A DNA stretch of 64,000 nt from Bolinopsis microptera (Eukaryota; Ctenophora; Tentaculata; Lobata; Bolinopsidae). The stretch is from NCBI RefSeq assembly GCF_026151205.1, contig NC_087073.1, positions 1,366,001 through 1,430,000 of the forward strand. The letters are read 5' to 3'. Below are positions 19,541-40,231 of this stretch, in pieces; position 1 is the first letter of the stretch; each line of letters begins with the position of its first letter. The notes below the pieces were generated by a model that had not been told where the DNA came from, searched no databases, and saw nothing but the letters and a program-made list of their open reading frames with translations. Position numbers and translations under genes: made by a program.

Positions 19541-19854
19541 TTGGTCAGCTCCCTCTTACTGATATCTGGATAATATCCGGTTGGAAGAGACAAGGACAAA
19601 TGAAACAAGGAAGTTAGGAGTAAGGGCAGATTTTCGGCGTCAACGCCATCTTCAGGCTAAAATTGGTATAAATGTTAGTATATAATTATAAATGCTTCTA
19701 TACTAGTTAAAATGCTAAATTGAAATTACATACACTGAATACAGGTTACATCAAATGGTATTATATAATACATTGAAAATGGTGATGTACACACGTTTTA
19801 CACTCTGTCCAAGTACATAATATCTACTGAACATAAGGGTCGTGTGCTATTTGT

Positions 19855-21911: not shown

Positions 21912-22287
21912 TGTTGGCGTGCAGTGTGATATTATTTTTCTGCTTCTTTCTGTAGAATTTGTGGTGTAGTGTTCCCTGCTCGTCTATCTTTATCTGGGTG
22001 TCGAGGAATGGGGTGAAATCCTGACGGCTTTCCGGATAGTCAATTTCCCACTTGAGCAACTGGTCTGGGTCCTCGTTTGAAATGGACTCCATTATCCTCA
22101 GAGCTTCTTCTTTGGAGCTAGCTAGACTCCCGGCATCATCCACGTATCTCCGGTAGAATGAGATGTGTAAATCAGTGTAAATCGATCTTCTTTCGAACAT
22201 ATATACTCGCACTATCGCTCCAATTGGTGATGGTTGGCACCCCATGAAGAGACCAATTTTCTGGAGGTAGAGTCTTGAGTGATATGG
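21912..22287 (-). pseudogene. PLE reverse transcriptase fragment
   Basis: Minus-strand RT segment: IGLFMGCQPSPIGAIV (motif B), FYRRYVDDAG (catalytic YVDD, both Asp kept), FTPFLDTQIKIDEQG and FYRKKQKNNITLHAN. It ends where element X interrupts the coding sequence, so the apparent C-terminus TVLLQR and onward is encoded by X. Motif A and everything upstream is missing, so this is a truncated, dead copy. Confidence 0.8.
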
Positions 22288-22339
22288 ATTTTTAAACAGG
22301 ATTAAACATAAAATTACCAGAGAGAACACTAACGGACTC

Positions 22340-22743
22340 GTCTTGGCTATACAAGAATGAATAAATGAATAAATAAAATTATCAAAACTGAATCATTTAA
22401 AAATAGTAAAATTTAACCGTTTACAATTTCACGAAAATAAAAGAAGATCGTCTATAATAATTTAAGGTAATACAATAAATAAAGTTCGAGTACTACATCT
22501 GTTTGCGAGGGTTAAGGGACGTTTTAGGAGGATTACGTAGATTTGAGGAGTCTGTAAGGTACTTCCCGAACTCTTTTATATGGGGTGAGTTCATTATTGC
22601 TCCATATTCTTTTAGCATCAACAGGCTTTTGAGGTTGTCAGAGAGGTTGGACCTGAGTTGATGGTAGTAGGGGCACTCAGTTAAGATGTGGTCTTCGGTT
22701 TCTAGAATAGGAGTTTCAAAGAAAGGGAGCTTCATATTCACAC
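22340..22743 (-). pseudogene. LINE 3' end (RT C-terminus and AT-rich tail)
   Basis: The minus-strand frame ending at 22493 contains ILETEDHILTECPYYHQLRS, the H-x-L-x-x-CP-x-Y pattern that closes many LINE reverse transcriptases, then an AT-rich tail with TTTATTCATTTATTCATT. It is cut off at 22743 where an oppositely oriented PLE begins. Only the last 80 or so residues remain. Confidence 0.6.
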
Positions 22744-22744
22744 C

Positions 22745-23500
22745 TGGTAAGAAACTCTCAGATATCTTATGTTCATCACGACCACACGACAAACCACACT
22801 GCACCATACCAAACTGTGTTATATGTCCACTCATCACAACAAATCACGACTGCAAACCAAAATCAAAAATGTGTCATATACAAAGTCACGTGTAAATTAT
22901 GTCAAGAGCTATATATAGGGGAAACGAGTAGAACAGCACACGATAGATTTTCAGAGCATCGAAGAGCAGTCAACAGGCCTTTAACCTATCCTGATAATGC
23001 GTTGGCTGCTCATTATTCAGAGTTTCACAATAACTTAGAACCAGACATTTCTTTCGATATTTTAGAAATTAACTTATATAGCACCATTAAACGAAAAGTG
23101 ACAGAAGCTTACTACATTAATTTATTTAAACCTAGTATCAATAACAAAGAAGAGTGCGAGAAGCTTAAGGGATTTCTTTTACAACATATTCAGAGACAAA
23201 TTTAAACAAATAGCACACGGCCCTTATGTTCAGTAGATATTATGTACTTGGACAGAGTGTAAAACGTGTGTACATCACCATTTTCAATGTATTATATAAT
23301 ACCATTTGATGTAACCTGTATTCAGTGTATGTAATTTCAATTTAGCATTTTAACTAGTATAGAAGCATTTATAATTATATACTAACATTTATACCAATTT
23401 TAGCCTGAAGATGGCGTTGACGCCGAAAATTTGCCCTTACTCCTAACTTTCTTGTTTCATTTGTCCTTGTCTCTTCCAACCGGATATTATCCAGATATCA
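22745..23500 (+). pseudogene. PLE endonuclease 3' end, inverted copy with a 7-bp frameshift
   Basis: Near-identical inverted copy of the PLE 3' end at 19560-20330. The translation runs TPGKKLSDIL to TTNHDCKPK, where 7 extra bases (relative to the other copy) shift the frame. The GIY-YIG core then continues (IYKVTCKLC, YIGETSRTAHDRF) to the stop at 23205. The 3' UTR with the GGCGT-TG-ACGCC hairpin lies at 23403-23425. Truncated at its 5' end against a LINE fragment, so non-functional. Confidence 0.85.
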
Positions 23501-23552
23501 GTATTTCAATCATGAGACTAATAAACAGCGAACTACTCCGATATTTGAAGCT

Positions 23553-24640
23553 CCCTCTTACCTGACCTTAATTGAGGTGACGAACGACACCTCGTTAATT
23601 CTATAAATGTCTGGAAAGCTGCAAATTTTCACATTCCCAGCACTTAAGATTCTTAAGGAGTTGTGCAAGATAACGATACATAGAGGCCGCAGAATTACGA
23701 GGACTACCAGATCCTCGTGGAACTTTCTAGAACTTAAGCGATCCATGATATCACGACAGGCCATACTATAATACAAGTACTACTGGCATCTGTTGATTTT
23801 AGATTTTAGGTTTCAGATTTCAGATTTCAGATTTTATAGATTTCAGATTTCAGATTTCAGATTTCAGATATCAGATTTCAGATTTCAGATTTCAGATTTC
23901 AGATTTCAGATTTCAGATTTCAGATGGCTGCATCATGCATCAGGTATTTACTCTCATTGCAACTTCTTTTTCTTTTCTTCTTATTCAGGGATGTTAGATA
24001 GTGATGTTATTTATTATCTCGCAACATTATGGTTGTGTACTGACAGCTGATCAACTCACCTACTTATCAATCCAACTCTGTATATTATTCGTCACTGATT
24101 GGGTGACGTGATCTGCAGATCACCGTGAGACCCCGTATCTCATGGGACCTAGTGGTTAGTGTTAAGCACACGTGTAGCATTTAGAAGTTAATTGGAAGTA
24201 AAAATTATATTCTTATAGCTTCCAGATCAAAGTTAAATTTATAATATCTGTGCACGAGACCGACTGGTGTGCGACTAGAATTTTTATTGATAACAGTAAA
24301 TTATTTGCAAATAAACTCAGCTGACCCAGAATTCTCGCGCACTAAATTAGATTTATCAGAGGCATGAAGTCTCCGGAAAAATTTCTTAAGTCGATAATTG
24401 CAAGAGAATATCCTGTCCTAAAATGTATCTTGTACTATAGGGCCTGTCATGATATCATGGATCGCTTAAGTTCCACGAGGATCTTGTAGTCCTCATAATT
24501 CTGCGGCCTCTATGGATCGTCATCTTGCACAAATCTTTAAGACCCTTGTGAGTTTGGCATGTGAAAATTAGCAGCCTTCAAGACATGAATTGGGCTAGCA
24601 AGGTGTCGTACGTCACCTCAAGATCGGGTGACAGGGGGCT
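23553..24640. repeat. Inverted repeat pair (about 220-bp arms) around an AT-rich core
   Basis: Bases about 23553-23778 match the reverse complement of about 24415-24640 (shared: GAGGCCGCAGAATTA, AAGCGATCCATGATATCA). Arms are perhaps 80 percent alike. The core holds a TTTCAGAT array at 23796-23925. The structure resembles an old foldback element. The outer edge of the right arm is also the start of the 1.41-kb tandem units. Confidence 0.6.
23796..23925. repeat. TTTCAGAT microsatellite
   Basis: About 15 near-perfect 8-bp units. The open frame across it reads FQISDFRFQISDFR-like repeats and is not a gene. Confidence 0.9.
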
Positions 24641-25811
24641 GACCAGGCCAGAACCCAGTTGATTGGGTCTGAGGTCAAGTGATTATGAGCCTGAGGTCAC
24701 GTGACTATGATGTCACCAGAGCTTTCAAGCTCTCTTTGACTTTGTTCCATATCCAATATTTAATGCTTACTTTATGCTTACAAGCACTAACTGATGTTTG
24801 TCGCCAATCTACTTTAAGTTCATACCAACGATCAAATTTTAAACATTTTAAAAAAAATGACAATGACTAGTGTATGTAGTACAAAGATGCTGATATCCTG
24901 GTACGCACAAAAAATCTACTTTGGCAATAGTTTCAGATACATTTCTATTTGATCTTCACAGTTTGAAGCTTTTGCGACTAGCGATGTAGCAGGACTAGCG
25001 ATGTAGTAATTATTCTACTAATAATATTCATCCTGTTTATTTAAATATAATTTGTCTCAAGAAATAATATTTAGACATTAAACGGAGAATTTTTTGATAC
25101 TAAGGGGCTGAGTCAGAGCCTAGAGGTTCACTGGGACCGGGGGAGAGAAAGCCTTGTGCAAAATGATCTAACATTGTGGGTGGATATCTTCATGGCTATT
25201 GTGAATAAGGTAATTCTTGTATAGTAGCTGTGCAACTGATTACTGTCTGATGGAGGGTGAGGGGGTCTTAAACGGCTGAAAGTTGGGTTATATTGAAACG
25301 TCGATGACCGCATCAGCCAACTCATATTATTATTTCGATCGTCCAAAAGACTCAAAAAAAAGGTTTTAAATAAACATTTGGGGGGGGGGGGGGGGGGGGG
25401 CGAACACTTATACCCAACCATAACCCGGCTGGGGCTAACTATGACTCTGACTTCAATCCTAGCCCTGTTGTAAATCATAAACTTCTCCAACTTGACCAGG
25501 ATTCTTTTTTAACCGTGGCTTAAGTGTCCCTAGGTTCCCTTCATGAAAATGGCAAATATACCTGAGATCCTGATCGCCTCTATATCTCCTGTTGAATGTG
25601 TTGTTTGGGTTTTGGAGTGGTCACCATTGCTAGGAGCTTTACCCTCATGACTATTGATGGGCACTGTGCTCTTCTCTTTTCATCTATAAGTATAATCATA
25701 TTATCTTCGACTTAAGTATTAACTATATAGTTAGTGTTACAAGGGGTGAAGCGCCTTGTTATTTTTTTTATTTTTTATTATTTGAAAATTCAATTAATCA
25801 TTATATATATA

Positions 25812-26108
25812 AACTAGAAAACCCGTGGTCACAGGGAGGAAGCTAATAGTATTTTTTGTTAGTAAGTTTAAATCGTGTCAAAAAGTATTCATCCCCACCG
25901 AAGATACAGCCAAATAAAATGTTGCTCGTACTAAACACAGCGTAATATCAACAAAACCGATTAAAATGACGTTAAAACAATCATTGCACGTGCACGTGCG
26001 TGTAACAATCCTCGTTACTATGGTTACTACGCAACTTCCTATTTCTCGTCTGATTTGCACGTGGGCGGTCGTACAGACATACAGACAGAAACAATTCTTT
26101 GAATTATA
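25812..26108. mobile_element. Roughly 297-bp insertion present only in tandem unit 1
   Basis: Sequence starting AACTAGAAAACCCGTGG and ending near TTATAGTAGAG lies between TATATATAAA and TTAAGCG, which are directly joined in units 2 and 3. Sister units therefore give the empty site. I recognise no family, and loss from the other units is equally possible. Confidence 0.55.
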
Positions 26109-26148
26109 GTAGAGATTAAGCGTTACATTTCAGCCATGCAAAATTACA

Positions 26149-26349
26149 ATGACATATTTTGATATACTAATTGATAAATGGTACTGCAATATAAGTTGCT
26201 TAATGTTTGGCCGGATGACAACTAACGAGAAAAATAAACTTGATTACATAATAAATAATTCGGCTGAACTAACACATAGCAAGAGCCACATTAACGTTGG
26301 GTTAGCAAGGTGTCGTACGTCACCTCAAGATCGGGTGACAGGGGGCTGA
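26149..26349 (+). pseudogene. LINE-like C-terminal fragment in tandem unit 1
   Basis: The frame reads DILIDKWYCNISCLMF, then NEKNKLDYII. This resembles the tail of some LINE ORF2 proteins (a WYG/N-N-L block followed by R-x-K-L-x-x-I-I). No upstream RT is present. Equivalent frames start at 27564 and 28976 in the next two units with only a few changes, so the fragment has been amplified with the satellite unit. Confidence 0.35.
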
Positions 26350-27563
26350 CCAGGCCAGAACCCAATTGATTGGGTCTGAGGTCACGTGATCTATGATTAT
26401 GAGCCTGAGGTCACGTGACTATGACGTCACCAGAGCTTTCAAGCTCTCTTTTACTTTGTTCCATATCCAATATTTAATGCTTACTTTATGCTTACAAGCA
26501 CTAACTGATGTTTATCGCCAATCTACTTTAAGTTCATACCAACGATCAAATTTTAAACATTTAAAAAAAAATGACAATGACTAGTGTATGTAGTACAAAG
26601 ATGCTGATATCCTGGTACGCACAAAAAATCTACTTTGGCAATAGTTTCAGATACATTTCTATTTGATCTTCACAGTTTGAAGCTTTTGCGACTAGCGATG
26701 TAGCAGGACTAACGATGTAGTAATTATTCTACTAATAATATTCATCCTGTTTATTTCAATATAATTTGTCCCAAGAAATAATATTTAGACATTAAACGGA
26801 GAATTTTTTGATGCTAAGGGGCTGAGTCAGAGCCTAGAGGTTCACTGGGACCGGGGGAGAGAAAGCCTTGTGCAAAATGATCTAACACCGTGGGTGGATA
26901 TCTTCATAGCTATTGTGAATAAGGTAAACTAATTCTTGTATAGTAGCTGTGCAACTGATTACTATCTGATGGAGGGTGAGGGGGTCTTAAACGGCTGAAA
27001 GTTGGGTTATATTGAAACGTCGATGACCGCATCAGCCAACTCATATTATTATTTCGATCGTCCAAAAGACTCAAAAAAAAGGTTTTAAATAAACACTTGG
27101 GGGGGGGGGGGGGGGGGCCGAACACTTATCCCCAACCATAACCCGGCCGGGGCTAACTATGACTCTGACTTCAATCCTAGCCCTGTTGTAAATCATAAAC
27201 TTCTCCAACTTGACCAGGATTCTTTTTTAACCGTGGCTTAAGTGTCCCTAGGTTCCCTTCATGAAAATCGCAAATATACCTGAGATCCTGATCGCCTCTA
27301 TATCGCCTGTTGAATGTGTTGTTTGGGTTTTGGAGTGGTCACCATTGCTAGGAGCTTTACCCTCATGACTATTGATGGGCACTGTGCTCTTCTCTTTTCA
27401 TCTATAAGTATAATCATATTATCTTCGACTTAAGTATTAACTATATAGTTAGTGTTACAAGGGGTGAAGCGCCTTGTTACTTTTTTTATTTTTTTTATTT
27501 GAAAATTCAATTAATCATTATATATATAAATTAAGCGTTACATTTCAGCCATGCAAAATTACA

Positions 27564-27764
27564 ATGACATATTTTAATATACTAATTGATAAATGGTACT
27601 GCAATATAATTTGCTTAATGTTTGGCCGGATGACAACTAACGAGAAAAATAAACTTGATTACATAATAATTAATTCGGCTGAACTAACACATAGCAAGAG
27701 CCACATTAACGTTGGGTTAGCAAGGTGTCGTACGTCACCTCAAGATCGGGTGACAGGGGGCTGA
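27564..27764 (+). pseudogene. LINE-like C-terminal fragment in tandem unit 2
   Basis: Copy of the fragment at 26149. It differs by a few residues and is open to the same stop beside the CACGTGA segment. The longer open frame from 27474 extends into T-rich sequence and is not extra protein evidence. Confidence 0.35.
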
Positions 27765-28975
27765 CCAGGCCAGAACCCAACTGATTGGGTCTGAGGTCAC
27801 GTGATTATGAGCCTGAGGTCACGTGACTATGACGTCACCAGAGCTTTCAAGCTCTCTTTGACTTTGTTCCATATCCAATATTTAATGCTTACTTTATGCT
27901 TACAAGCACTAACTGATGTTTGTCGCATATCTACTTTAAGTTCATACCAACGATCAAATTTTAAACATTTTTAAAAAAATGACAATGACTAGTGTATGTA
28001 GTACAAAGATGCTGATATCCTGGTACGCACAAAAAATCTACTTTGGCAATAGTTTCAGATACATTTCTATTTGATCTTCACAGTTTGAAGCTTTTGCGAC
28101 TAGCGATGTAGCAGGACTAACGATGTAGTAATTATTCTACTAATAATATTCATCCTGTTTATTTCAATATAATTTGTCTCAAGAAATAATATTTAGACAT
28201 TAAACGGAGAATTTTTTGATGCTAAGGGGCTGAGTCAGAGCCTAGAGGTCACTGGGACCGGGGGAGAGAAAGCCCTGTGCAAAATGATCTAACACTGTGG
28301 GTGGATATCTTCATAGCTATTGTGAATAAGGTAATTCTTGTATAGTAGCTGTGCAACTGATTACTGTCTGATGGAGGGTGAGGGGGTCTTAAACGGCTGA
28401 AAGTTGGGTTATATTGAAACGTCGATGACCGCATCAGCCAACTCATATTATTATTTCGATCGTCCAAAAGACTAAAAAAAAGAAGGTTTTAAATAAACAC
28501 TTGGGGGGGGGGGGGGGGGGGGGGGAGGGGCGAACACTTATCCCCAACCATAACCCGGCCGGGGCTAACTATGACTCTGACTTCAATCCTAGCCCTGTTG
28601 TAAATCATAAACTTCTCCAACTTGACCAGGATTCTTTTTTAACCGTGGCTTAAGTGTCCCTAGGTTCCCTTCATGAAAATCGCAAATATACCTGAGATCC
28701 TGATCGCCTCTATATCTCCTGTTGAATGTGTTGTTTGGGTTTTGGAGTGGTCACCATTGCTAGGAGCTTTACCCTCATGACTATTGATGGGCACTGTGCT
28801 CTTCTCTTTTCATCTATAAGTATAATCATATTATCTTCGACTTAAGTATTAACTATATAGTTAGTGTTACAAGGGGTGAAGCGCCTTGTTACTTTTTTTA
28901 TTTTTTTTATTTGAAAATTCAATTAATCATTATATATATAAATTAAGAGTCACATTTCAGCCATGCAAAATTACA

Positions 28976-29176
28976 ATGACATATTTTGATATACTAATTG
29001 ATAAATGGTACTGCAATATAAGTTGCTTAATGTTTGGCCGGATGACAACTAACGAGAAAAATAAACTTGATTACATAATAATTAATTCGGCTGAACTAAC
29101 ACATAGCAAGAGCCACATTAACGTTGGGTTAGCAAGGTGTCGTACGTCACCTCAAGATCGGGTGACAGGGGGCTGA
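28976..29176 (+). pseudogene. LINE-like C-terminal fragment in tandem unit 3
   Basis: Third copy of the fragment at 26149. It lies only about 40 bp from the insertion point of the long-inverted-repeat element. Confidence 0.35.
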
Positions 29177-29207
29177 CCAGGCCAAACCCAATTGATTGGG
29201 TCTGAGG

Positions 29208-29215
29208 TCACGTGA
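29208..29215. repeat. Left 8-bp target duplication TCACGTGA
   Basis: Matches 38827-38834. The uninterrupted site, one copy of TCACGTGA followed by TTATGAGCC, is present in the sister unit near 27795. The motif is its own reverse complement. Confidence 0.85.
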
Positions 29216-29580
29216 GTAGATGGGAATGTATGAAGGCCAGTCATCAAGTAGCCCCCAGCCACTCACAGCACGCCCTCAGGTCACGTGACAGCACGTCACA
29301 AGGGTCACGTGACAGATCACATGTCATGTAACCACGTGACAAGCTCGTCAATCAAATGTCAAGGTCACGTGACATTTGATTGACCAATGAGGAGCCAGAA
29401 CGTCATGACGAATCAATCAATAATCCCGACTAAAGGATCTAAAGTCTGATTAAACGGTTGCCAAGCAGGTTCCTGTCACTTGATTACCAGTCACGTGTTT
29501 AGCTTAAGCATCATGTGACATGAATGTTATTGAACCTCGAGATCACGTGACAGGAGTCACTTGATTACCCGTCAGAACGT
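29208..29580. promoter_or_regulatory. Cluster of TCACGTGA/CACGTG motifs in the left subterminal region
   Basis: At least seven CACGTG cores within 370 bp (near 29210, 29282, 29306, 29333, 29366, 29492 and 29545), several as full TCACGTGA. Dense subterminal motifs are typical transposase-binding sites. CACGTG is also the E-box bound by bHLH factors. The mirror cluster lies at about 38460-38834. Confidence 0.55.
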
Positions 29581-29860
29581 CATGATGAATAATTCAATAA
29601 TCCTGTCTAAAGGATCTAAAGTCAGATTAAACGGTTGCCAAGCAGGTTCCAGTTATTTGATTACTGGTCAAATGATTCTTCACGATTTACCCCGGTCCAG
29701 TCACCACTCCAAATAAGCAGAGGGTGACATAACGAAATGTGGTGTAGGGTTACCATCGCTCGAACTCCTGGAAATTACAAGTCTTATCATCAATTTTCTG
29801 ACATTTAAGCAATAGCTACAGTATCTGAACCACATTTTCACCCTTTAAGATATAACAACT

Positions 29861-29932
29861 GTTAGGTAGCCTAGTGGTTAGAACATCCGTCTTCTGCACA
29901 AAAGGTTCAGGGTTCAAAGTCGAGTCTAGGGA
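29861..29932 (+). repeat. tRNA-derived sequence in the left arm
   Basis: Good A box (TAGCCTAGTGGTTAG) and a B-box-like GGGTTCAAAGTC 40 bp on. The expected stem pairing is poor, so it is a SINE head rather than a tRNA gene. The mirror copy is at 38110-38181. Confidence 0.6.
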
Positions 29933-30156
29933 GTAGCTAAGGCTCCATACCATTCACTATTATTAACTATTAAATTTGCTTGTTATAAATTTGATAAATT
30001 TCGAGAGACAAATAAAACTACCGTTTAATTGATAATTTGTTGTTGTCAACATTATAATCATAAATTGAAATCATCAAGAGTAAGATTGGGTACATAAATC
30101 ATTGTATAACAGTTGCACGTTAATGGTGTTCTAGTACAGGTAGTTAGTTCCACCAA

Positions 30157-30846
30157 CTACTTATTCAGATAAAGTTTGAGAATCTTATCGACAATAGTTG
30201 TGTTTTCGTTCATAAGTTTGTTTACATCAGATAGACTTGTAGTGGTGATAACTGCATCCAATAGAGATCGTTCTTCCAAACTTAAAATATCTGTTAGGTC
30301 TTCTCCGCTGTCAATTAAACGCTGCTTCAAGACAACAAACAATTCGGTTTTCATCATGTATGAGAATAAAATGTCAAAACATTTATTTTGCTCTTTACAC
30401 AATTTACTTTGTAACAGGACGTCTAGAGATTTAAGTAAACTCGATATCTTTTTACTGTTTGGTTGTTTGATTGGTACTCCTTTCCGCTTGCCTACGTGTT
30501 GCCAGTCAGTATCAGATTCTAACTCTTTAGCACTATATTCTTTGTTGGACTCATCATCGCTACTTGTTACACCACTAAATTCATCATCACCACTACCTGG
30601 TACATCAGAGTTAGAACCACCTTGCTGAGATTCTTCAGAAACTATTGTATCAGCATCTGAACATACAGAATCAGGACCCTCCATTTTGACATCAGTCACA
30701 TCTGAGTTAGCTTTTGACAGCGGCAGTAGAATTGCAGAACTTTCATCTGACTCTCGGTTCTCTCGATGATACCTACTAATGTGTGAGGACAGACTATATT
30801 TATTGGCAAAAGACTTGTCACAGAATGAGCAGGTTACAGAATTCAT
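30157..30846 (-). CDS. C2H2 zinc-finger/acidic protein, left-arm copy
   Basis: A complete 229-residue frame. Residues 6-28 form one C2H2 finger (CSFCDKSFANKYSLSSHISR, then YH; spacing C-x2-C-x12-H-x4-H). The middle, about 33-120, is strongly acidic and Ser-rich. It is followed by a basic KRKGVPIKQPNSKK segment that could be a nuclear signal, then a predicted helical C-terminus (SLLKSLDVLL, ILSLEERSLLDAV, IVDKILKLYL). A single finger plus acidic region suggests a DNA-binding regulator. Its place in both arms of the element suggests a role in its biology, though a captured host gene is possible. I recognise no family. It is identical to the right-arm protein and is transcribed toward the left end. 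Confidence 0.75.
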   Translation of the reverse strand: MNSVTCSFCDKSFANKYSLSSHISRYHRENRESDESSAILLPLSKANSDVTDVKMEGPDSVCSDADTIVSEESQQGGSNSDVPGSGDDEFSGVTSSDDESNKEYSAKELESDTDWQHVGKRKGVPIKQPNSKKISSLLKSLDVLLQSKLCKEQNKCFDILFSYMMKTELFVVLKQRLIDSGEDLTDILSLEERSLLDAVITTTSLSDVNKLMNENTTIVDKILKLYLNK

Positions 30847-30864
30847 AACTGCAGTACAAACGTT

Positions 30865-31200
30865 TTATAATGCTATGCAACAACCATTATATAGCAATAA
30901 TCGCATAAAATCGCAAATAATCGCAAAATAATCGCATATAATCGCATATAATAGCATATAATAGCATATAATGGCATAAAATTGCAAATAATCGCATATA
31001 ATTGCAAAATAATTCCACAAAATAGCATATAATAGCATATAATCGCATATAATCGCATATAATAGCATATAATAGCATATAATCACATTTAATCACATAT
31101 ATAATCACGTATATTATCTCTTAAAATCACATTTTATTATTTATACTCGCAAATAATTGCATATAATTGCAAATAATCGCATATAGTAGCAGGGTGAATA
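30865..31200. repeat. AT-rich 10-bp repeat (TAGCATATAA type), left arm
   Basis: Degenerate array of TAATCGCATA/TAATAGCATA units lying directly upstream of the zinc-finger gene. Overlapping open frames reading LLYAIICYYM-type repeats are products of the 10-bp period (30 bp gives 10 codons). The mirror copy is at 36842-37177. Confidence 0.85.
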
Positions 31201-31319
31201 TGATCCAACGTATGCATTCAACCTATTAAAGATCTTTTCAAAGATTTATTTTCATGCTGATTGCCAAGCATCATCCTGGAGATGGAACTGTAACTCTTGA
31301 GTCTACCAAAGACTGCACC

Positions 31320-34300
31320 TTGTGTAGGAATACTTCCTAGTGGGGACTTTAAAGGACCACACCAGACAGGACAAGGAGATCATGGTAAATTCTACGTCAA
31401 CTAGTCAGACGGAGATCATCTTCGAGATCTATCACTTTCTGGATTATCATTCATAACCAGTAGTCGGCGCACCATTGATTTCTGCTTTCAAATGATAACT
31501 GCTAATACTCTTGTCGATTTTATTGCACAGAAACCAGCATTTGACCGGGACCGGGATCGGGAATAGCTCAAAATTGTCAATCCCAGTACCGGGATTCCCG
31601 GTGCCGGGAATCCCGGTCGATTACTGGTGCATGCAACTGGCCAGGTTTAGGTATCAGGTGATTTTTCCTGCAATTTGGTAGTTGTGAAATATCACCTTGG
31701 ATTTCTGTTGTCACAAAACGTACCTTTTTAGACCTTTTCTCAAAGCATATAATAGCATATAATAGCATATAATCACATATAATAGCATATAATAGCATAT
31801 AATAGCATATAATAGCATATAATCGCATATAATCGCATGTAATATCATTCGATCACATATATAATCCATTGGGTGGGCGAAAATTGTCCCCCGACAATTG
31901 ACCCCCCGATAATTGACCCCCGACAATGTAACTCAATACAACATCACCACATACCATACTCCTCACGGTTCTCTTGATCTAGGAAGAATGCACCTTTGTT
32001 GTGGTGTGCCACACTCCACATGGACAAATCTCACGATACTCTTGATTTAAGAAGTAGGTACTTTTGTTGTGATGTGCCACACTCCACATGAACAAATCCG
32101 CTAAATACTGAATAAATGCCGAATACTGAATGAATACTGAATGAATACTAAATGAATACTAAATGAATACTGAATGTATACTGAATGAATACTGAATGAA
32201 TACTGAATGAATACTGAATGAATACTGAATGAATACTGAATGAATACTGAATGAATACTGAATGAATACTGAATGAATACTGAATGAATACTGAACGATT
32301 ACTGAATGAATACTGAATGAATACTGAATGAATACTGAAAATAATCGCAAATAATAGCATATAATATCATATAATATCATATAATAGCATATAATAGCAT
32401 ATAATAGCATATAATTGCATATAATAGCATATAATAATAACATACGATCGCATTCGGTAGACTCAAGAATTACAGTTCAATCGCCAGCATATAATTGCAT
32501 ATAATAGCATATAATATCATATAATCGCATATAATAGCATTATATAATATCATATAATCGCATATATGATAGCTTATAATAGCATATAATAGCATATATA
32601 ATCGCATTCGGTAGACTCAAGAGTTATAGTTCCATCTCCAACATATATTCAATAATCGCATATAATAGCATATAATATTTTATAATCGCATTTAAATGAA
32701 TACCAATGGTCGTTACGTTTAAATAGATAAAATTAAATGTTTTAAAAGAGCGATCCATCTGAAGAAGTAGGCTAGGCGGGATTACCCAACATGTAGGAAT
32801 ACTTCCTAGTGGGGACATTAAAGAACCACACCAGACAGGACAAGGAGATCATGGTGAATTCTACGTCAACTAGCCAGACGGAGATCATCTTCGAGATCTA
32901 TCACTTTCTGGATTATCATTCATAACCAGTAGTCAGCGCACCATTGATTTCTGCTTTCAAATGATAACTGCTAATACTCTTGTCGATTTTAATGCACAGA
33001 AACCAGCATTTGACCGGGACCGGGGCCGGGATAGCTCAAAAATTGCCAAACCCGGTACCGGGAATCCCGGTCGATTACTGGTGCATGCAACTGACCAGGT
33101 TTAGGTATCAGGTGATTCTGCAATTTGGTAGTTGTGAAACATCACCTTGGATTTCTGTTGTCACAAAACGTACCTTTTTAGACCTTTTCTCAAAGCATAT
33201 AATAGCATATAATAGCATATAATCACATATAATAGCATATAATAGCATATAATAGCATATAATAGCATATAATCGCATATAATCGCATGTAATATCATTC
33301 GATCACATATATAATCCATTGGGTGGGCGAAAATTGTCCCCCGACAATTGACCCCCCGATAATTGACCCCCGACAATGTAACTCAATACAACATCACCAC
33401 ATACCATACTCCTCACGGTTCTCTTGATCTAGAAAGAATGCACCTTTGTTGTGGTGTGCCGCACTCCACATGGACAAATCTCACGATACTCTTGATCTAG
33501 GAAGGAGGTACTTTTGTTGTGATGTGCCACACTCCACATGAACAAATCCGCTAAATACTGAATAAATGTCGAATACTGAATGAATACTGAATGAATACTA
33601 AATGAATACTGAATGTATACTGAATGAATACTGAATGAATACTGAATGAATACTGAATGAATACTGAATGAATACTGAATGAATACTGAATGAATACTGA
33701 ATGAATACTGAATGAATACTGAATGAATACTGAACGATTACTGAATGAATACTGAATGAATACTGAATGAATACTGAAAATAATCGCAAATAATAGCATA
33801 TAATATCATATAATATCATATAATAGCATATAATAGCATATAATAGCATATAATTGCATATAATAGCATATAATAATAACATACGATCGCATTCGGTAGA
33901 CTCAAGAATTACAGTTCAATCGCCAGCATATAATTGCATATAATAGCATATAATATCATATAATCGCATATAATAGCATTATATAATATCATATAATCGC
34001 ATATATGATAGCTTATAATAGCATATAATAGCATATATAATCGCATTCGGTAGACTCAAGAGTTATAGTTCCATCTCCAACATATATTCAATAATCGCAT
34101 ATAATAGCATATAATATTTTATAATCGCATTTAAATGAATACCAATGGTCGTTACGTTTAAATAGATAAAATTAAATGTTTTAAAAGAGCGATCCATCTG
34201 AAGAAGTAGGCTAGGCGGGATTACCCAACATGTAGGAATACTTCCTAGTGGGGACATTAAAGAACCACACCAGACAGGACAAGGAGATCATGGTGAATTC

Positions 34301-35650
34301 TACGTCAACTAGCCAGACGGAGATCATCTTCGAGATCTATCACTTTCTGGATTATCATTCATAACCAGTAGTCAGCGCACCATTGATTTCTGCTTTCAAA
34401 TGATAACTGCTAATACTCTTGTCGATTTTAATGCACAGAAACCAGCATTTGACCGGGACCGGGGCCGGGATAGCTCAAAAATTGCCAAACCCGGTACCGG
34501 GAATCCCGGTCGATTACTGGTGCATGCAACTGACCAGGTTTAGGTATCAGGTGATTCTGCAATTTGGTAGTTGTGAAACATCACCTTGGATTTCTGTTGT
34601 CACAAAACGTACCTTTTTAGACCTTTTCTCAAAGCATATAATAGCATATAATAGCATATAATCACATATAATAGCATATAATAGCATATAATAGCATATA
34701 ATAGCATATAATCGCATATAATCGCATGTAATATCATTCGATCACATATATAATCCATTGGGTGGGCGAAAATTGTCCCCCGACAATTGACCCCCCGATA
34801 ATTGACCCCCGACAATGTAACTCAATACAACATCACCACATACCATACTCCTCACGGTTCTCTTGATCTAGAAAGAATGCACCTTTGTTGTGGTGTGCCG
34901 CACTCCACATGGACAAATCTCACGATACTCTTGATCTAGGAAGGAGGTACTTTTGTTGTGATGTGCCACACTCCACATGAACAAATCCGCTAAATACTGA
35001 ATAAATGTCGAATACTGAATGAATACTGAATGAATACTAAATGAATACTGAATGTATACTGAATGAATACTGAATGAATACTGAATGAATACTGAATGAA
35101 TACTGAATGAATACTGAATGAATACTGAATGAATACTGAATGAATACTGAATGAATACTGAATGATTACTGAATGAATACTGAATGAATACTGAATGAAT
35201 ACTGAAAATAATCGCAAATAATAGCATATAATATCATATAATATCATATAATAGCATATAATAGCATATAATAGCATATAATTGCATATAATAGCATATA
35301 ATAATAACATACAATCGCATTCGGTAGACTCAAGAATTACAGTTCAATCGCCAGCATATAATTGCATATAATAGCATATAATATCATATAATCGCATATA
35401 ATAGCATTATATAATATCATATAATCGCATATATGATAGCTTATAATAGCATATAATAGCATATATAATCGCATTCGGTAGACTCAAGAGTTATAGTTCC
35501 ATCTCCAACATATATTCAATAATCGCATATAATAGCATATAATATTTTATAATCGCATTTAAATGAATACCAATGGTCGTTACGTTTAAATAGATAAAAT
35601 TAAATGTTTTAAAAGAGCGATCCATCTGAAGAAGTAGGCTAGGCGGGATT
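31320..35650. repeat. Internal tandem array, unit 1,439 bp, three copies
   Basis: Landmarks recur at a fixed spacing: TGTAGGAATACTTCCTAGTG at about 31323, 32792 and 34231, and the frames at 33161 and 34600 exactly 1,439 bp apart. Units 2 and 3 look almost identical; unit 1 differs by about 11 bp in length. Each unit holds a CCGGGA-rich segment, a TAGCATATAA array, CCCCCGACAATTGAC motifs, an 11-bp TGAATGAATAC array, and a second 10-bp array. Unit 1 overlaps the inner end of the left inverted repeat. The junction of units 1/2 and 2/3 lies in a truncated tRNA-like sequence. Confidence 0.9.
32100..32340. repeat. 11-bp TGAATGAATAC minisatellite (unit 1; also in units 2 and 3)
   Basis: Near-perfect 11-bp repeats, repeated at about 33560-33780 and 35000-35210. 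The frames reading FSIHSVFIQYS repeats on the minus strand are by-products of the period (33 bp gives 11 codons). Confidence 0.9.
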
Positions 35651-35722
35651 TGAACCCGCATTGTCCTGCATAGGAAAGTTGCCGTTAACTCACTAACCTG
35701 AGGCTCCAGATGGACCGCTGTT
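35636..35722 (-). repeat. tRNA-like sequence at the end of the tandem array
   Basis: The minus strand carries a B box (GCGGGTTCAAATCCCGC, a perfect T-arm hairpin) and an A-box-like GAGCCTCAGGTTAGTG. It is flanked by AGCGATCCATCT and its near reverse complement, an outer stem. Units 1 and 2 retain only its 3' end as far as GGCGGGATT, so this is the only full copy. It is likely a SINE head rather than a working tRNA. Confidence 0.6.
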
Positions 35723-35887
35723 AAAATGAAAATATGAACATGTTTAACAAGATCGTTACGAATATCACGTGACGGATGCTATTATAACGTACTTGCTTCT
35801 TATTGGTCAATTAACTTGTCACGTAACCTTGACATTTCATTTACGAGCTTGTCAGTTTAAAATAATACATTATAGTTATAAATGGCT

Positions 35888-35970
35888 ATGTGGCACAGTT
35901 CGTTAGTCTGCCTGCTTGTGAAATGTCTCGCATTCACAGGGTCCCGGGTTCGATTCCCGTCTGTGCCACT
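35888..35970 (+). repeat. tRNA-like SINE head beside the right arm
   Basis: GGCACAG at the 5' end pairs with CTGTGCC at the 3' end (a 7-bp acceptor-like stem). A T-arm (CGGGTTCGATTCCCG) is present and TGTGAA/TTCACA can form an anticodon-like stem, but with a 10-nt loop. The oversized loop and unusual D-region argue for a SINE or tRNA pseudogene. Its downstream body (ATGTGGAGTGTGGC) runs into the right inverted repeat. Confidence 0.55.
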
Positions 35971-37195
35971 AGCTATGGGGAGAGCATCTGAATTTTCCAA
36001 GAATCTATTCATGTGGAGTGTGGCAAACCACAACAAAGGTGCATTCTTCCTAGATCAAGAGAACCGTGAGGAGTATGGTATGTGGTGATGTTGTATTGAG
36101 TTACATTGTCGGGGGTCAATTATCGGGGGGTCAATTGTCGGGGGACAATTTTCGCCCACCCAATGGATTATATATGTGATCGAATGATATTACATGCGAT
36201 TATATGCGATTATATGCTATTATATGCTATTATATGCTATTATATGCTATTATATGCTATTATATGCTATTATATGCGATTATATGCTATTATATGCTTT
36301 GAGAAAAGGTCTAAAAAGGTACGTTTTGTGACAACAGAAATCCAAGGTGATATTTCACAACTACCAAATTGCAGGAAAAATCACCTGATACCTAAACCTG
36401 GCCAGTTGCATGCACCAGTAATCGACCGGGATTCCCGGCACCGGGAATCCCGGTACTGGGATTGACAATTTTGAGCTATTCCCGATCCCGGTCCCGGTCA
36501 AATGCTGGTTTCTGTGCAATAAAATCGACAAGAGTATTAGCAGTTATCATTTGAAAGCAGAAATCAATGGTGCGCCGACTACTGGTTATGAATGATAATC
36601 CAGAAAGTGATAGATCTCGAAGATGATCTCCGTCTGACTAGTTGACGTAGAATTTACCATGATCTCCTTGTCCTGTCTGGTGTGGTCCTTTAAAGTCCCC
36701 ACTAGGAAGTATTCCTACACAAGGTGCAGTCTTTGGTAGACTCAAGAGTTACAGTTCCATCTCCAGGATGATGCTTGGCAATCAGCATGAAAATAAATCT
36801 TTGAAAAGATCTTTAATAGGTTGAATGCATACGTTGGATCATATTCACCCTGCTACTATATGCGATTATTTGCAATTATATGCAATTATTTGCGAGTATA
36901 AATAATAAAATGTGATTTTAAGAGATAATATACGTGATTATATATGTGATTAAATGTGATTATATGCTATTATATGCTATTATATGCGATTATATGCGAT
37001 TATATGCTATTATATGCTATTTTGTGGAATTATTTTGCAATTATATGCGATTATTTGCAATTTTATGCCATTATATGCTATTATATGCTATTATATGCGA
37101 TTATATGCGATTATTTTGCGATTATTTGCGATTTTATGCGATTATTGCTATATAATGGTTGTTGCATAGCATTATAAAACGTTTGTACTGCAGTT

Positions 37196-37885
37196 ATGAA
37201 TTCTGTAACCTGCTCATTCTGTGACAAGTCTTTTGCCAATAAATATAGTCTGTCCTCACACATTAGTAGGTATCATCGAGAGAACCGAGAGTCAGATGAA
37301 AGTTCTGCAATTCTACTGCCGCTGTCAAAAGCTAACTCAGATGTGACTGATGTCAAAATGGAGGGTCCTGATTCTGTATGTTCAGATGCTGATACAATAG
37401 TTTCTGAAGAATCTCAGCAAGGTGGTTCTAACTCTGATGTACCAGGTAGTGGTGATGATGAATTTAGTGGTGTAACAAGTAGCGATGATGAGTCCAACAA
37501 AGAATATAGTGCTAAAGAGTTAGAATCTGATACTGACTGGCAACACGTAGGCAAGCGGAAAGGAGTACCAATCAAACAACCAAACAGTAAAAAGATATCG
37601 AGTTTACTTAAATCTCTAGACGTCCTGTTACAAAGTAAATTGTGTAAAGAGCAAAATAAATGTTTTGACATTTTATTCTCATACATGATGAAAACCGAAT
37701 TGTTTGTTGTCTTGAAGCAGCGTTTAATTGACAGCGGAGAAGACCTAACAGATATTTTAAGTTTGGAAGAACGATCTCTATTGGATGCAGTTATCACCAC
37801 TACAAGTCTATCTGATGTAAACAAACTTATGAACGAAAACACAACTATTGTCGATAAGATTCTCAAACTTTATCTGAATAAGTAG
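37196..37885 (+). CDS. C2H2 zinc-finger/acidic protein, right-arm copy
   Basis: Exact mirror of the gene at 30157-30846: same 229 residues, same C2H2 finger at 6-28, acidic Ser-rich middle and helical C-terminus. It is transcribed toward the right end of the element, so the two copies diverge from the array in the centre. Identity of both copies means either very recent formation of the arms or ongoing gene conversion between them. The start is the first ATG after the AT-rich repeat, and no longer in-frame start exists because of upstream stops. Confidence 0.75.
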   Translation: MNSVTCSFCDKSFANKYSLSSHISRYHRENRESDESSAILLPLSKANSDVTDVKMEGPDSVCSDADTIVSEESQQGGSNSDVPGSGDDEFSGVTSSDDESNKEYSAKELESDTDWQHVGKRKGVPIKQPNSKKISSLLKSLDVLLQSKLCKEQNKCFDILFSYMMKTELFVVLKQRLIDSGEDLTDILSLEERSLLDAVITTTSLSDVNKLMNENTTIVDKILKLYLNK

Positions 37886-38109
37886 TTGGTGGAACTAACT
37901 ACCTGTACTAGAACACCATTAACGTGCAACTGTTATACAATGATTTATGTACCCAATCTTACTCTTGATGATTTCAATTTATGATTATAATGTTGACAAC
38001 AACAAATTATCAATTAAACGGTAGTTTTATTTGTCTCTCGAAATTTATCAAATTTATAACAAGCAAATTTAATAGTTAATAATAGTGAATGGTATGGAGC
38101 CTTAGCTAC

Positions 38110-38181
38110 TCCCTAGACTCGACTTTGAACCCTGAACCTTTTGTGCAGAAGACGGATGTTCTAACCACTAGGCTACCTAAC
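38110..38181 (-). repeat. tRNA-derived sequence in the right arm
   Basis: Mirror copy of the SINE head at 29861-29932. Confidence 0.6.
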
Positions 38182-38826
38182 AGTTGTTATATCTTAAAGG
38201 GTGAAAATGTGGTTCAGATACTGTAGCTATTGCTTAAATGTCAGAAAATTGATGATAAGACTTGTAATTTCCAGGAGTTCGAGCGATGGTAACCCTACAC
38301 CACATTTCGTTATGTCACCCTCTGCTTATTTGGAGTGGTGACTGGACCGGGGTAAATCGTGAAGAATCATTTGACCAGTAATCAAATAACTGGAACCTGC
38401 TTGGCAACCGTTTAATCTGACTTTAGATCCTTTAGACAGGATTATTGAATTATTCATCATGACGTTCTGACGGGTAATCAAGTGACTCCTGTCACGTGAT
38501 CTCGAGGTTCAATAACATTCATGTCACATGATGCTTAAGCTAAACACGTGACTGGTAATCAAGTGACAGGAACCTGCTTGGCAACCGTTTAATCAGACTT
38601 TAGATCCTTTAGTCGGGATTATTGATTGATTCGTCATGACGTTCTGGCTCCTCATTGGTCAATCAAATGTCACGTGACCTTGACATTTGATTGACGAGCT
38701 TGTCACGTGGTTACATGACATGTGATCTGTCACGTGACCCTTGTGACGTGCTGTCACGTGACCTGAGGGCGTGCTGTGAGTGGCTGGGGGCTACTTGATG
38801 ACTGGCCTTCATACATTCCCATCTAC

Positions 38827-38834
38827 TCACGTGA
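38827..38834. repeat. Right 8-bp target duplication TCACGTGA
   Basis: Directly followed by TTATGAGCCTGAGG, the continuation of the interrupted satellite unit. Confidence 0.85.
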
Positions 38835-39242
38835 TTATGAGCCTGAGGTCACGTGACTATGACGTCACCAGAGCTTTCAAGCTCTCTTTGACTTTGTTCC
38901 ATATCCAGATTGGGCGACATCTGTCCGAAAGCGACATCTGTCCGAAAGCTGAATTAGGGATTTCGGACAGATGTCGCTGTCGGACAGGAGTCGTTTTTGG
39001 CGACATCTGTCCGAATTTCGGATCATATTGTAATTTCGGTTCACATTCGCATTTCACAAGCTCACAGGTAATCTCGTGACGTTCTAAAGCTGATGTGATC
39101 CCTTAAGATCTGATCCATCGATACGTGATTGACTAGTTGAGAACAGGATCGTGCTAGCCGTACCCTAACAAGCTGTCGATCACATCACAGGACATGAGCA
39201 CATATAGGACAGCAGTATGGAGATCACTTATCGCAATCCACA

Positions 39243-39509
39243 ATGGCAACCAATCTTCAGTTTATCCCTGGACGCAAAAAAGGCTCGGAGAACCCTATCC
39301 TAAATGGCTTCAGATACGTCTTCGACAAGCGAAGTAACGACACCTCCTACTGGAAATGTTCGGAATTCCGAAAGGGTTGCAGAGCCCGCATCCGTACCGT
39401 GGACAGACAACTGATCACTCCTACTCCTGACCACACTCACCCTGTCCACCATGCTGAAACAACCGTCCACGTCATTCCTGCAAACTACATCCTCTCAACG
39501 AACCAATGA
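39243..39509 (+). CDS. FLYWCH-type zinc finger of the MULE
   Basis: Starts MATNLQFIPGRKKGSENPIL, then GFRYVFDK, SYWKCSEFRKGCRARIRT and finally HTHPVHHAE. This is the FLYWCH pattern: aromatic Y-x-F, W-x-C, C-R-A-R and the closing H-x-H. FLYWCH fingers bind DNA and commonly precede MULE transposase domains in animals. A TGA ends the frame at 39509, only 88 codons in, where the transposase should continue. Confidence 0.8.
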   Translation: MATNLQFIPGRKKGSENPILNGFRYVFDKRSNDTSYWKCSEFRKGCRARIRTVDRQLITPTPDHTHPVHHAETTVHVIPANYILSTNQ

Positions 39510-39703
39510 TGCTCTGGGACTCTGGATGGGACGAACGGACTCGTCGATCTTTCCTTTGGGGGACTCCTAAGAACGCAGATCATATGGTGGACGCGGAGCA
39601 TTGGGTAGTCGACGGTACCTTCAAATCCGCACCTAATCTCTTCCATCAGCTCTTAACAGTCCATGGCCTCTTCCCTGACGGCTGGCACCTCCCCCTCTTC
39701 TAA
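39506..39703 (+). pseudogene. MULE transposase core, truncated and out of frame
   Basis: Reads HWVVDGTFKSAPNLFHQLL then VHGLFPDG. This is the signature around the first catalytic Asp (DGTFK) of MULE DDE transposases. It lies in a different frame from the FLYWCH part, and the linker of about 100 residues normally between them is lost. The frame stops at 39703, before the other catalytic residues, so there is no active enzyme. Confidence 0.8.
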
Positions 39704-40127
39704 TTATATTGAATTAATTTATAACATTTAAATAACATTGAAACTATTGTCCAATTTATCGACATCAAATTAAAATAAACTGTGGTAGTAAACTATGGCT
39801 CAGATCATATCTCAAATTGGACATGTTACGTATACAATTTAGCAAGTAACAGTTTAGATCATGTCTCTAATTGGAAATGTGTCGTATTGAAATCAGGTCA
39901 CAATTTCGGACAGATGTCGTTTTTTTCTGGTACCCTGATTCGGACAGATGTCGCTTTCGGACAGATGTCGCTGTCGGACAGGAGTCGTGTTACCCCATAT
40001 CCAATATTTAATGCTTACTTTATGCTTACAAGCACTAACTGATGTTTGTCACCAAATTACTTGAAGTTCATACCAACGATCAAATTTTAAACATTAAAAA
40101 AAAAAAGACAATGACTAGTGTATGTGT

Positions 40128-40231
40128 ATGTATTCTGTGTAAAATTATCTTTATCCCGGTTGTTGCGACAAGTAAAAATGCTCTTATTAGGGAAAGGAGA
40201 TTACTCGACGTTTCAATGTAACTACATCGTA
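40128..40231 (-). mobile_element. PLE 3'-end fragment
   Basis: About 104 bp matching the reverse complement of 1158-1261 with a few changes. The open frame and endonuclease are absent. Confidence 0.75.

What the first reader, a model, noticed from the sequence alone, without database searches (positions are those of the whole stretch)
29216..38826. A 9.6-kb element with 2.8-kb, near-identical terminal inverted repeats and its empty site in the same window
The inverted arms pair about a single centre (coordinate sum 68042) and are bounded by GTAGATGGG ends and TCACGTGA duplications. Neighbouring satellite units at about 26380 and 27795 show the unoccupied site. The element carries a zinc-finger gene in each arm and a satellite-like core but no recognisable transposase. 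This combination does not match a family I can name and is the best candidate for an undescribed mobile system in the window.
Basis: partly seen in the sequence, partly recalled or inferred. Interest (0 to 1): 0.92.

Follow-up and report, generated by a model that had tools for sequence, protein, structure and literature searches.

The report
Twin-armed satellite of Maverick viruses
A 9.6-kb DNA element, probably from a comb jelly, looks like a mirror-image, gene-carrying hitchhiker of Maverick virus-transposons: it shares their ends and insertion mark, lacks their enzymes, and carries one conserved gene twice.

Summary
The inverted structure is real: 2.8-kb arms, 99.6% identical, with a precise empty site in a neighbouring repeat unit. 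The boundaries need a small correction: the element is 29215-38827, its ends read AGTAGATGGG, and the target duplication is 6 bp (CACGTG), not 8. A genome-wide scan found 49 such ends; 44 form 22 inverted pairs. Of 17 twin-armed copies read, 16 have exact 6-bp duplications.
Two of the 22 pairs are long Mavericks/Polintons (18.4 and 12.0 kb) with integrase, double-jelly-roll capsid, and ATPase- and protease-like genes. They share only the terminal ~0.45 kb with the window element. The other 20 are short; 19 of 20 have zinc-finger gene matches in both arms. (AGT)2 ends and 6-bp duplications are published Maverick features (PMC8097293).
So this is not an unknown transposon class but a non-autonomous Maverick derivative with an unusual architecture: one accessory-gene end duplicated as a palindrome, arms kept alike, gene under mild purifying selection. 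The layout recurs with two other end types. Most likely it arose like the symmetric defective genomes of protein-primed viruses (inferred).

The parts
29209..29214 (.). target-site duplication, left copy (CACGTG)
29215..38827 (.). whole element (9613 bp), ends AGTAGATGGG...CCCATCTACT
29215..32022 (+). left arm of the long terminal inverted repeat
   Evidence: 99.6% identical to the right arm
29215..29664 (+). terminal segment shared with full-size Mavericks (93.8% to the C1 copy over ~450 bp)
30157..30846 (-). C2H2 zinc-finger gene, left copy, 229 aa plus stop, transcribed outward
32023..36009 (+). core; in this copy apparently inflated by ~1.44-kb tandem units derived from the inner arm (repeat starts near 31313, 32792, 34231)
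35601..36010 (+). asymmetric core segment found, whole or in part, in 15 of 17 family copies read (this one included), about 95-100% identical where aligned
35635..35699 (-). tRNA-like sequence in the core (Rfam RF00005, 37.2 bits, gathering score 29; ARAGORN finds no tRNA)
35892..35971 (+). second tRNA-like sequence in the core (weak tmRNA-model match, below gathering score)
36010..38827 (-). right arm of the long terminal inverted repeat
37196..37885 (+). C2H2 zinc-finger gene, right copy, 229 aa plus stop, transcribed outward
38378..38827 (-). terminal segment shared with full-size Mavericks, right copy
38828..38833 (.). target-site duplication, right copy (CACGTG)
27703..27863 (+). empty site in a neighbouring host repeat unit (98.8% to the joined flanks)

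Best explanation
The element is a non-autonomous derivative (satellite) of a Maverick/Polinton. SHOWN: it shares its terminal ~0.45 kb, end motif and 6-bp target duplication with full-size Mavericks of the same genome, shows no recognisable integrase, polymerase or capsid gene, and keeps a zinc-finger gene in each of two near-identical 2.8-kb arms. The same layout occurs with two other Maverick-like end types. In one of these (D) the twin arm matches, in order, the zinc-finger-bearing end of three 13.7-14.5-kb elements that carry a pol-like exon, while at their other ends I saw matches only to the first ~130-190 bases of the arm. INFERRED: (1) a Maverick end carrying the accessory gene was duplicated in inverted orientation during protein-primed, strand-displacement replication (snap-back or inter-arm template switch), deleting the rest and giving a palindromic genome like the symmetric defective genomes of adenoviruses; (2) it is replicated and integrated in trans by Maverick polymerase and integrase; (3) the displaced strand folds into a long hairpin whose stem is mismatch-corrected, so both arms become alike in each cycle; (4) the zinc-finger protein is kept because it helps replication or expression, possibly by binding Maverick ends.
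For: Ends and duplications: 49 A-type ends genome-wide, 0 for the reversed control, 22 inverted pairs; exact 6-bp TSD in 16 of 17 twin A copies, 1 of 1 family C and 1 of 1 family D copies, and 2 of 2 full-size A Mavericks (read by eye). Helper genes: rve (E 3.6e-5), two DNA_pol_B_2 pieces (about 3e-4), weak ATPase and protease matches, all below Pfam's curated cut-offs; capsid protein modelled at pLDDT 88 with PBCV-1, iridovirus, mavirus and Sputnik double-jelly-roll capsids among the best folds. Literature: 6-bp TSD (passages), (AGT)2 ends and accessory ORFs flanking the modules (PMC8097293 section 7). Arm origin: D-arm positions 1-750 and 767-2390 lie in order at one end of 3 of 4 full-size D elements (C13, C7, C12). 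Their other ends matched only 1-131 or 1-187 of a 201-base query (two of them with a second short piece), and a query of positions 190-750 matched one end of each and not the other (40 of 84 candidates scored). All 4 carry the pol-like exon. Twin layout: 43 inverted against 4 direct zinc-finger pairs within 12 kb, 80 of 110 places paired; integrase 0 of 30, capsid 2 of 39, pol-like exon 2 of 22, DNA_pol_B_2 8 of 20. Arms kept alike: in 13 of 17 A elements (14 of 17 if gaps are not counted) both arms are closer to each other than to any other copy's arm aligned over at least 1000 columns. Selection: dN/dS 0.32-0.52 between families, median 0.39 within A (96 of 190 pairs, those with dS above 0.02); the coding part is more conserved (98.5%) than most of the arm outside it (94-97%) between A copies.
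Against: No full-size Maverick with A-type ends AND the zinc-finger gene was seen, so the A parent is inferred by analogy with D; one candidate (C7, near 5418217) has a largely withheld interior (L028: 5431 of 8000 bases). Full-size D interiors were read only in part (3 kb of one, 1238 bases of it withheld), and no capsid or integrase match fell in them. The fourth full-size D element (C4:8557351-8578534) has a rearranged arm and matches positions 1-750 at both ends, so it does not fit the simple picture. The A helpers look damaged: the 12-kb copy lacks most of the pol region and the 18.4-kb copy's pol is in pieces. Pooled pN/pS within A is 0.76, so selection on recent copies is weak. The 200 bases just upstream of the gene (98.8%) are as conserved as the coding part. 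C4a and C4b fail the arm test, C8 fails it when gaps count, and C6 cannot be judged beyond 463 bp. Replication mode, mobilisation and protein function were not tested.
Confidence: 0.82

Rival explanations
1. An independent DNA transposon family whose zinc-finger protein is itself the mobilising protein; the resemblance of the ends to Mavericks comes from Mavericks having captured or shared ends.
For: The zinc-finger protein is the only recognisable protein of the window element and is matched in all 20 short A pairs, in one arm or both; a relative persists at about 30% identity.
Against: No catalytic domain: Pfam sees only a weak C2H2 finger; the model is poor, mostly disordered with a small helical C-terminus and no significant PDB match. 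Both long elements with the same ends encode an rve-like integrase and gave no zinc-finger match. Ends and TSD match the published Maverick pattern.
Confidence: 0.07
2. A foldback- or MULE-like transposon with long inverted repeats and 8-bp duplications, unrelated to Mavericks.
For: Long inverted arms; an apparent 8-bp duplication at this single site.
Against: Duplication is 6 bp in 16 of 17 copies; ends shared with Mavericks.
Confidence: 0.02
3. Passive wreckage: ordinary internally deleted Mavericks whose arms became inverted after insertion, with the gene no longer functional.
For: Non-autonomous deletion derivatives are common for transposons in general (recalled); pooled pN/pS within A is 0.76.
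Against: 20 short inverted pairs at different places, 16 of the 17 read with an exact TSD of their own, mean the layout itself multiplies; the gene is open over all 229 codons in 34 of 40 arms (rows); coding sequence is among the best conserved parts of the arm; three end types show the layout.
Confidence: 0.08
4. Assembly artefact (false inverted duplication).
For: Long, near-identical arms are hard to assemble, and the tandem core of this copy may be mis-sized.
Against: 22 inverted end pairs at different sites, with asymmetric cores and arm differences in several copies.
Confidence: 0.01

Closest known systems
Maverick/Polinton (adintovirus-like) elements
   Same: 5'-AGTAG(T/A) ends, 6-bp duplication, terminal ~0.45 kb shared with full copies in the same genome, accessory-type ORF near an end
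   Different: no recognisable integrase, polymerase, ATPase, protease or capsid gene; 5.6-9.6 kb instead of 12.7-24.6 kb; arms 2.8 kb against 46-1447-bp TIRs in intact vertebrate Mavericks (PMC8097293, section 7); one gene present twice
Symmetric (palindromic) defective adenovirus genomes such as the Ad12 symmetric recombinant (recalled; two searches found no paper)
   Same: one end of a linear, protein-primed genome duplicated in inverted orientation with a rearranged or foreign middle
   Different: those are passage products (recalled); here the form is integrated in a genome, multiplied, diversified and keeps an open gene
Virophages/Mavirus as satellites of larger viruses
   Same: dependence on another virus for functions (inferred here)
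   Different: virophages encode capsid and replication genes (recalled); none was recognised in this element
MITEs and other non-autonomous DNA transposons
   Same: share only the ends with the autonomous partner
   Different: large, gene-bearing, with arms kept alike within each copy

Membership tests
Maverick/Polinton (as non-autonomous derivative) | 6-bp target-site duplication | tested here: met
   16 of 17 twin A copies exact, one differs at 2 of 6; 2 of 2 full-size A copies
Maverick/Polinton (as non-autonomous derivative) | end motif (AGT)2 or similar | tested here: met
   families C and D AGTAGT exactly; A AGTAGA, one base off
Maverick/Polinton (as non-autonomous derivative) | terminal sequence shared with an autonomous-type copy | tested here: met
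   ~450 bp at 93.8% with C1, 362 bp at 91.4% with C7
Maverick/Polinton, autonomous | integrase, protein-primed PolB, ATPase, protease, capsid genes | tested here: not met
   of the ORFs of 70 aa or more in the element the zinc-finger ORF has only zinc-finger matches and 9 of the 25 others were scanned, without a Pfam match up to E 0.1; the integrase and capsid searches gave no match in the window's stretch
Maverick/Polinton (the helper copies C1 and C7) | integrase and double-jelly-roll capsid genes | tested here: met
   rve E 3.6e-5 and 0.011 for two ORFs, below Pfam's cut-off; capsid fold; both genes present in both copies
Palindromic defective genome of a protein-primed virus | arms derived from one end of the parent | tested here: inconclusive
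   family D: supported in 3 of 4 full-size elements by search rows, interiors mostly unread; family A: parent not found
Palindromic defective genome of a protein-primed virus | replication by protein priming with helper polymerase | not testable with these tools
   needs experiment
MULE / foldback | 8-9-bp duplication | tested here: not met
   duplication is 6 bp
Virophage / satellite virus | own capsid gene | tested here: not met
   no capsid-like ORF recognised in the element (9 of 25 other ORFs scanned)

The most novel reading that the evidence does not exclude
A self-perpetuating lineage of palindromic satellite Mavericks in an animal germ line. Each satellite carries a doubled regulatory gene, re-copies one arm onto the other in every replication cycle, and has formed or been rebuilt around at least three Maverick end types. 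The zinc-finger protein would be the satellite's own tool for capturing, or damping, the helper virus, making these elements possible heritable anti-Maverick agents.
Probability: 0.25. Interest if true: 0.8.

Novelty: new variant of a known kind. Interest (0 to 1): 0.6.

Why it matters
Mavericks are held to be integrated DNA viruses, yet their particles had not been observed (abstract of PMC8097293 in the listing). Defective palindromic copies that transpose leave a readable record of how such genomes replicate: arms that stay alike point to a hairpin or panhandle intermediate. If the twin gene is a satellite function, this would be a helper-satellite system between DNA virus-transposons in an animal, and arm-to-arm identity could date insertions as LTRs do for retroviruses.

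Tried and rejected
Rejected: an 8-bp duplication and GTAGATGGG boundary (one search showed a consistent one-base shift and 6 bp). Rejected: MULE/foldback and assembly error. Rejected: zinc-finger protein as a recognisable transposase.

Led nowhere: searches of viral contigs with the zinc-finger alignment and with the helper capsid protein found no relative (both answers warn that records near this genome may be left out). The zinc-finger model is poor (mean pLDDT 53.7) and the best of its Foldseek hits has E 0.84. PDB profile searches gave a CTCF finger (E 4.8e-4) for the zinc-finger alignment and one hit at E 0.46 for the capsid. The best BFVD hit of the capsid model is an uncharacterised bracovirus protein with a low TM-score (0.39); adomavirus LO7 and virophage capsid proteins follow from rank 2. 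The pol-like exon in L057 has no Pfam match up to E 0.1 and no tblastn match in the A helper pieces. I call it polymerase-like because relatives of it lie beside both capsid and integrase matches in 5 other places (C9, C1, C10 twice, C2; compare) and by a resemblance recalled from memory, so this label is inference. The one listing for 'polinton' with 'defective interfering' was unrelated; two adenovirus queries returned none.

Choices and dropped rows: gene places were merged from same-strand matches starting within 1.5 kb (128 rows to 110 places for the zinc finger), pairs counted up to 12 kb. The twin-arm tables hold 17 of the 20 short A elements; C2:16917236, C3:5321661 and C13:4353898 were not fetched. 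One search ranked other arms by bit score (14 of 17 by that reading); one search repeats the test by identity and gives 13 of 17 (14 without gaps). C6 arms align over only 463 bp because the copy is rearranged. 'Full-size D' means the four D-end pairs longer than 13 kb; a 12.0-kb pair (C11:10825957-10838131) with two close zinc-finger matches and no pol-like match was set aside. In some searches only 40 of 58, 169 and 84 candidates were scored, so missing rows are weak evidence. In one search the A set is 20 distinct coding sequences picked by a short motif, so copies without it (C7a, C4b) are left out. Identities leave out gaps.
Full report
WHAT IS THERE. The two arms of the reported element align at 99.6% over 2825 columns, each holds an identical 229-aa C2H2 zinc-finger ORF, and a clean empty site lies in the neighbouring host repeat: the joined flanks match 27703-27863 at 98.8%. 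The window lies in a 264.65-Mb genome of 232 contigs. The host is probably a comb jelly, perhaps Bolinopsis microptera. This is inference: contigs C1 to C13 hold nearly all matches and the 12 whose length was shown are 16-26 Mb, a capsid relative is named from Mnemiopsis leidyi (P0038, 75% identity over 80% of the query), and a published Bolinopsis assembly has 13 chromosome-scale scaffolds and about 254 Mbp (PMC10232365, passages).

BOUNDARIES. With 16 other twin-armed copies in hand, left flanks end in a 6-mer plus A and right flanks begin with T plus the same 6-mer. Moving the boundary by one base gives exact 6-bp duplications in 16 of 17 twin-armed A copies, the exception differing at 2 of 6 positions (C1b), and element ends AGTAGATGGG, AGTAGAAGGG, AGTAGATGGT or AGTAGATAGG. 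In the window the duplication is CACGTG, which with the terminal A/T looked like an 8-bp palindrome.

FAMILY SIZE. A 24-base end pattern with up to 2 mismatches finds 49 ends and none for the reversed control; 44 of the 49 form 22 inverted pairs within 25 kb. Lengths are 5.6-9.6 kb for 20 pairs and 12.0 and 18.4 kb for two. Compared, 19 of the 20 short pairs have zinc-finger matches in both arms (some damaged) and 1 has one (C2:16917236). The two long ones have none. The ORF is open over all 229 codons in 34 of these 40 arms (rows). The window copy is the longest short one, apparently because its core holds extra ~1.44-kb units copied from the inner arm.

THE LONG COPIES ARE MAVERICKS. ORFs of the C7 copy match rve (3.6e-5 and, for a second ORF, 0.011), and weakly FtsK/A32-type ATPases and Ulp1-type proteases; two ORFs of the C1 copy match DNA_pol_B_2 (about 3e-4). 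All are below Pfam's curated cut-offs. Integrase and capsid genes lie in both copies. The 431-aa capsid candidate, modelled from 36 sequences (pLDDT 88.1, pTM 0.86), matches double-jelly-roll capsids of PBCV-1, iridovirus, mavirus and Sputnik (best E 1.1e-17) and, after an uncharacterised bracovirus protein of low TM-score, adomavirus, virophage and MELD-virus proteins in BFVD. Their TIRs are 537 bp (99.8%, C1) and 1198 bp (99.9%, C7). They share about 450 bp (93.8%, C1) or 362 bp (91.4%, C7) with the window element's end; beyond that only short copies of end-repeat pieces were seen. PMC8097293 (passages; section 7 read) describes vertebrate Mavericks with (AGT)2//(ACT)2 ends, 6-bp duplications, TIRs of 46-1447 bp, sizes of 12.7-24.6 kb and accessory ORFs flanking the core modules. 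The window element fits the end motif (one base off) and the duplication, and exceeds the TIR range.

THE LAYOUT RECURS. A zinc-finger search gives 128 matches. After merging they form 110 places, of which 80 lie in 43 inverted pairs within 12 kb, against 4 direct pairs. By the same count integrase has 0 of 30 places in inverted pairs, capsid 2 of 39, the pol-like exon 2 of 22 and DNA_pol_B_2 8 of 20. Two further end types carry twin elements: family C (L054, ends AGTAGTATAT, TSD CATCTC, arms 3720 bp at 99.7%, gene pointing inward, core with two other ORFs, one of which is 38.5% identical to an ORF near the A helpers' ends) and family D (L055, ends AGTAGTGTAA, TSD CTGACC, arms 2390 bp at 99.9%, gene pointing outward).

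WHERE THE ARMS COME FROM. The 2390-bp D arm, searched in the genome, matches one end of the elements C13:3767549-3781938, C7:14206006-14219758 and C12:9923590-9938116 in order: positions 1-750 at 76%, then 767-2390 at 83-84%, with 1.1 kb (C13, C7) or 1.6 kb (C12) between. Their other ends matched only positions 1-131 (with a second short piece in C13 and C12) or 1-187 of a 201-base query, and positions 190-750 matched one end of each and not the other. These searches scored only 40 of their candidates, so the missing rows are not proof. Each of the three has one zinc-finger gene, about 2-2.6 kb from that end. A fourth long element (C4:8557351-8578534) has a rearranged arm and matches 1-750 at both ends. 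All four carry a pol-like exon, read directly in L057, whose first part is withheld. The reading is that twin D elements are inverted duplications of the gene-bearing end of a pol-bearing Maverick. For family A the equivalent parent was not found.

ARMS KEPT ALIKE, AND SELECTION. In 13 of 17 A elements both arms are closer to each other than to any other copy's arm aligned over at least 1000 columns; 14 of 17 if gaps are not counted (a first test by bit score gave 14). For the window it is 99.9% over 2600 columns against 98.7%. C4a and C4b fail, C8 fails only through gaps, and C6 cannot be judged beyond 463 bp. In C4a the two arms have different nearest relatives along much of their length, and in C4b the left arm matches other copies better than the right does in most stretches, which suggests occasional exchange between elements. 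The simplest reading is that both arms are made from one template, or corrected against each other, as expected for a hairpin or panhandle intermediate. Between elements the coding part of the arm is 98.5% identical, against 95.3% for positions 1-450, 97.1% for 500-945 and 94.2% for 1633-2500, although positions 1601-1800, directly upstream of the gene, reach 98.8%. dN/dS is 0.32-0.52 between families and 0.39 (median of 96 pairs) within A, while the pooled pN/pS within A is 0.76. So selection is present but mild, and recent copies look nearly neutral, as expected for integrated copies.

THE PROTEIN. It has one N-terminal C2H2 finger (Pfam E 1.1e-4, below the cut-off), an acidic middle and a conserved C-terminus with an invariant LSDVNKLMNEN stretch in 14 of 14 aligned sequences. 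The model is confident only for part of the C-terminal helices and has no significant PDB match. A DNA-binding regulator is the obvious guess, unproved. A distant relative (about 30%) with a likely intron lies about 3 kb beyond a 1253-aa DNA_pol_B_2 frame at C9 and, by coordinates, 2-3 kb beyond one at C3; two other such relatives (C7, C1) have no DNA_pol_B_2 match near them. This suggests that the gene was a Maverick accessory gene from early on.

THE CORE. A 410-bp asymmetric segment with two tRNA-like sequences is found, whole or in part, in 15 of 17 A elements; C1b and C4c lack it, and the second tRNA-like sequence is absent in four. It contains a short fragment of the terminal repeat. Rfam scores one as tRNA above its gathering score and the other only weakly; ARAGORN finds none.

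COMPARISON AND NOVELTY. It works like a non-autonomous transposon or defective viral genome; by ends, duplication and shared terminal sequence it belongs to the Maverick/Polinton group as a derivative, not as an autonomous element. Beyond the zinc finger, 9 of its 25 other ORFs of 70 aa or more were scanned and none has a Pfam match up to E 0.1; many of the rest are repeats of these or low-complexity frames. I found no description of twin-armed, gene-bearing Maverick derivatives in the listings or passages seen; most subscription papers are outside that library, so 'undescribed' is not proved. I rate it a new variant of a known kind.

Noticed in passing
G000 C7:6691702-6704377, C9:6595755-6607507, C9:663553-672993, C8:6278714-6287052: Four inverted pairs of DNA_pol_B_2 genes 7.6-11.3 kb apart, six of the eight genes in stop-free frames of 1261 aa: perhaps other palindromic Maverick-like elements that keep the polymerase instead of the zinc-finger gene.
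   Followed up: partly
G000 C9:8584616-8593032: Inverted pair of capsid-protein genes with an integrase match between them.
   Followed up: no
window 38907-39994: Small element with GCGACATCTGTCCGAAAG-type inverted ends and a FLYWCH/MULE-like ORF fragment, inserted in the same host repeat unit just right of the main element; a 9-bp duplication (CCATATCCA) is seen by eye. Family name recalled, not tested.
   Followed up: partly
window 24590-29215 and 38828-40128: Host repeat of about 1.4 kb in tandem with CACGTG sites; by eye, the left flank of a family-D twin element elsewhere (L055) is the same kind of sequence.
   Followed up: partly
window 19557-23503: 766-bp inverted repeats at 98.4% around ORFs that look like reverse transcriptase and GIY-YIG endonuclease pieces, perhaps two Penelope-like copies head to head (labels recalled).
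   Followed up: partly
window 20934-21913 and 47921-48899: A 984-bp inverted repeat pair (97.5%) 26 kb apart.
   Followed up: no
L053 (G000 C1:3740300-3746000): Zinc-finger twin locus with a nested, nearly perfect palindrome of about 1.4 kb (97.8%) inside its left part.
   Followed up: no
L058 (G000 C9:2283700-2286900): Distant zinc-finger relative with an apparent intron; 24 bases upstream of the gene match a stretch upstream of the gene in the window element at 95.8%.
   Followed up: partly
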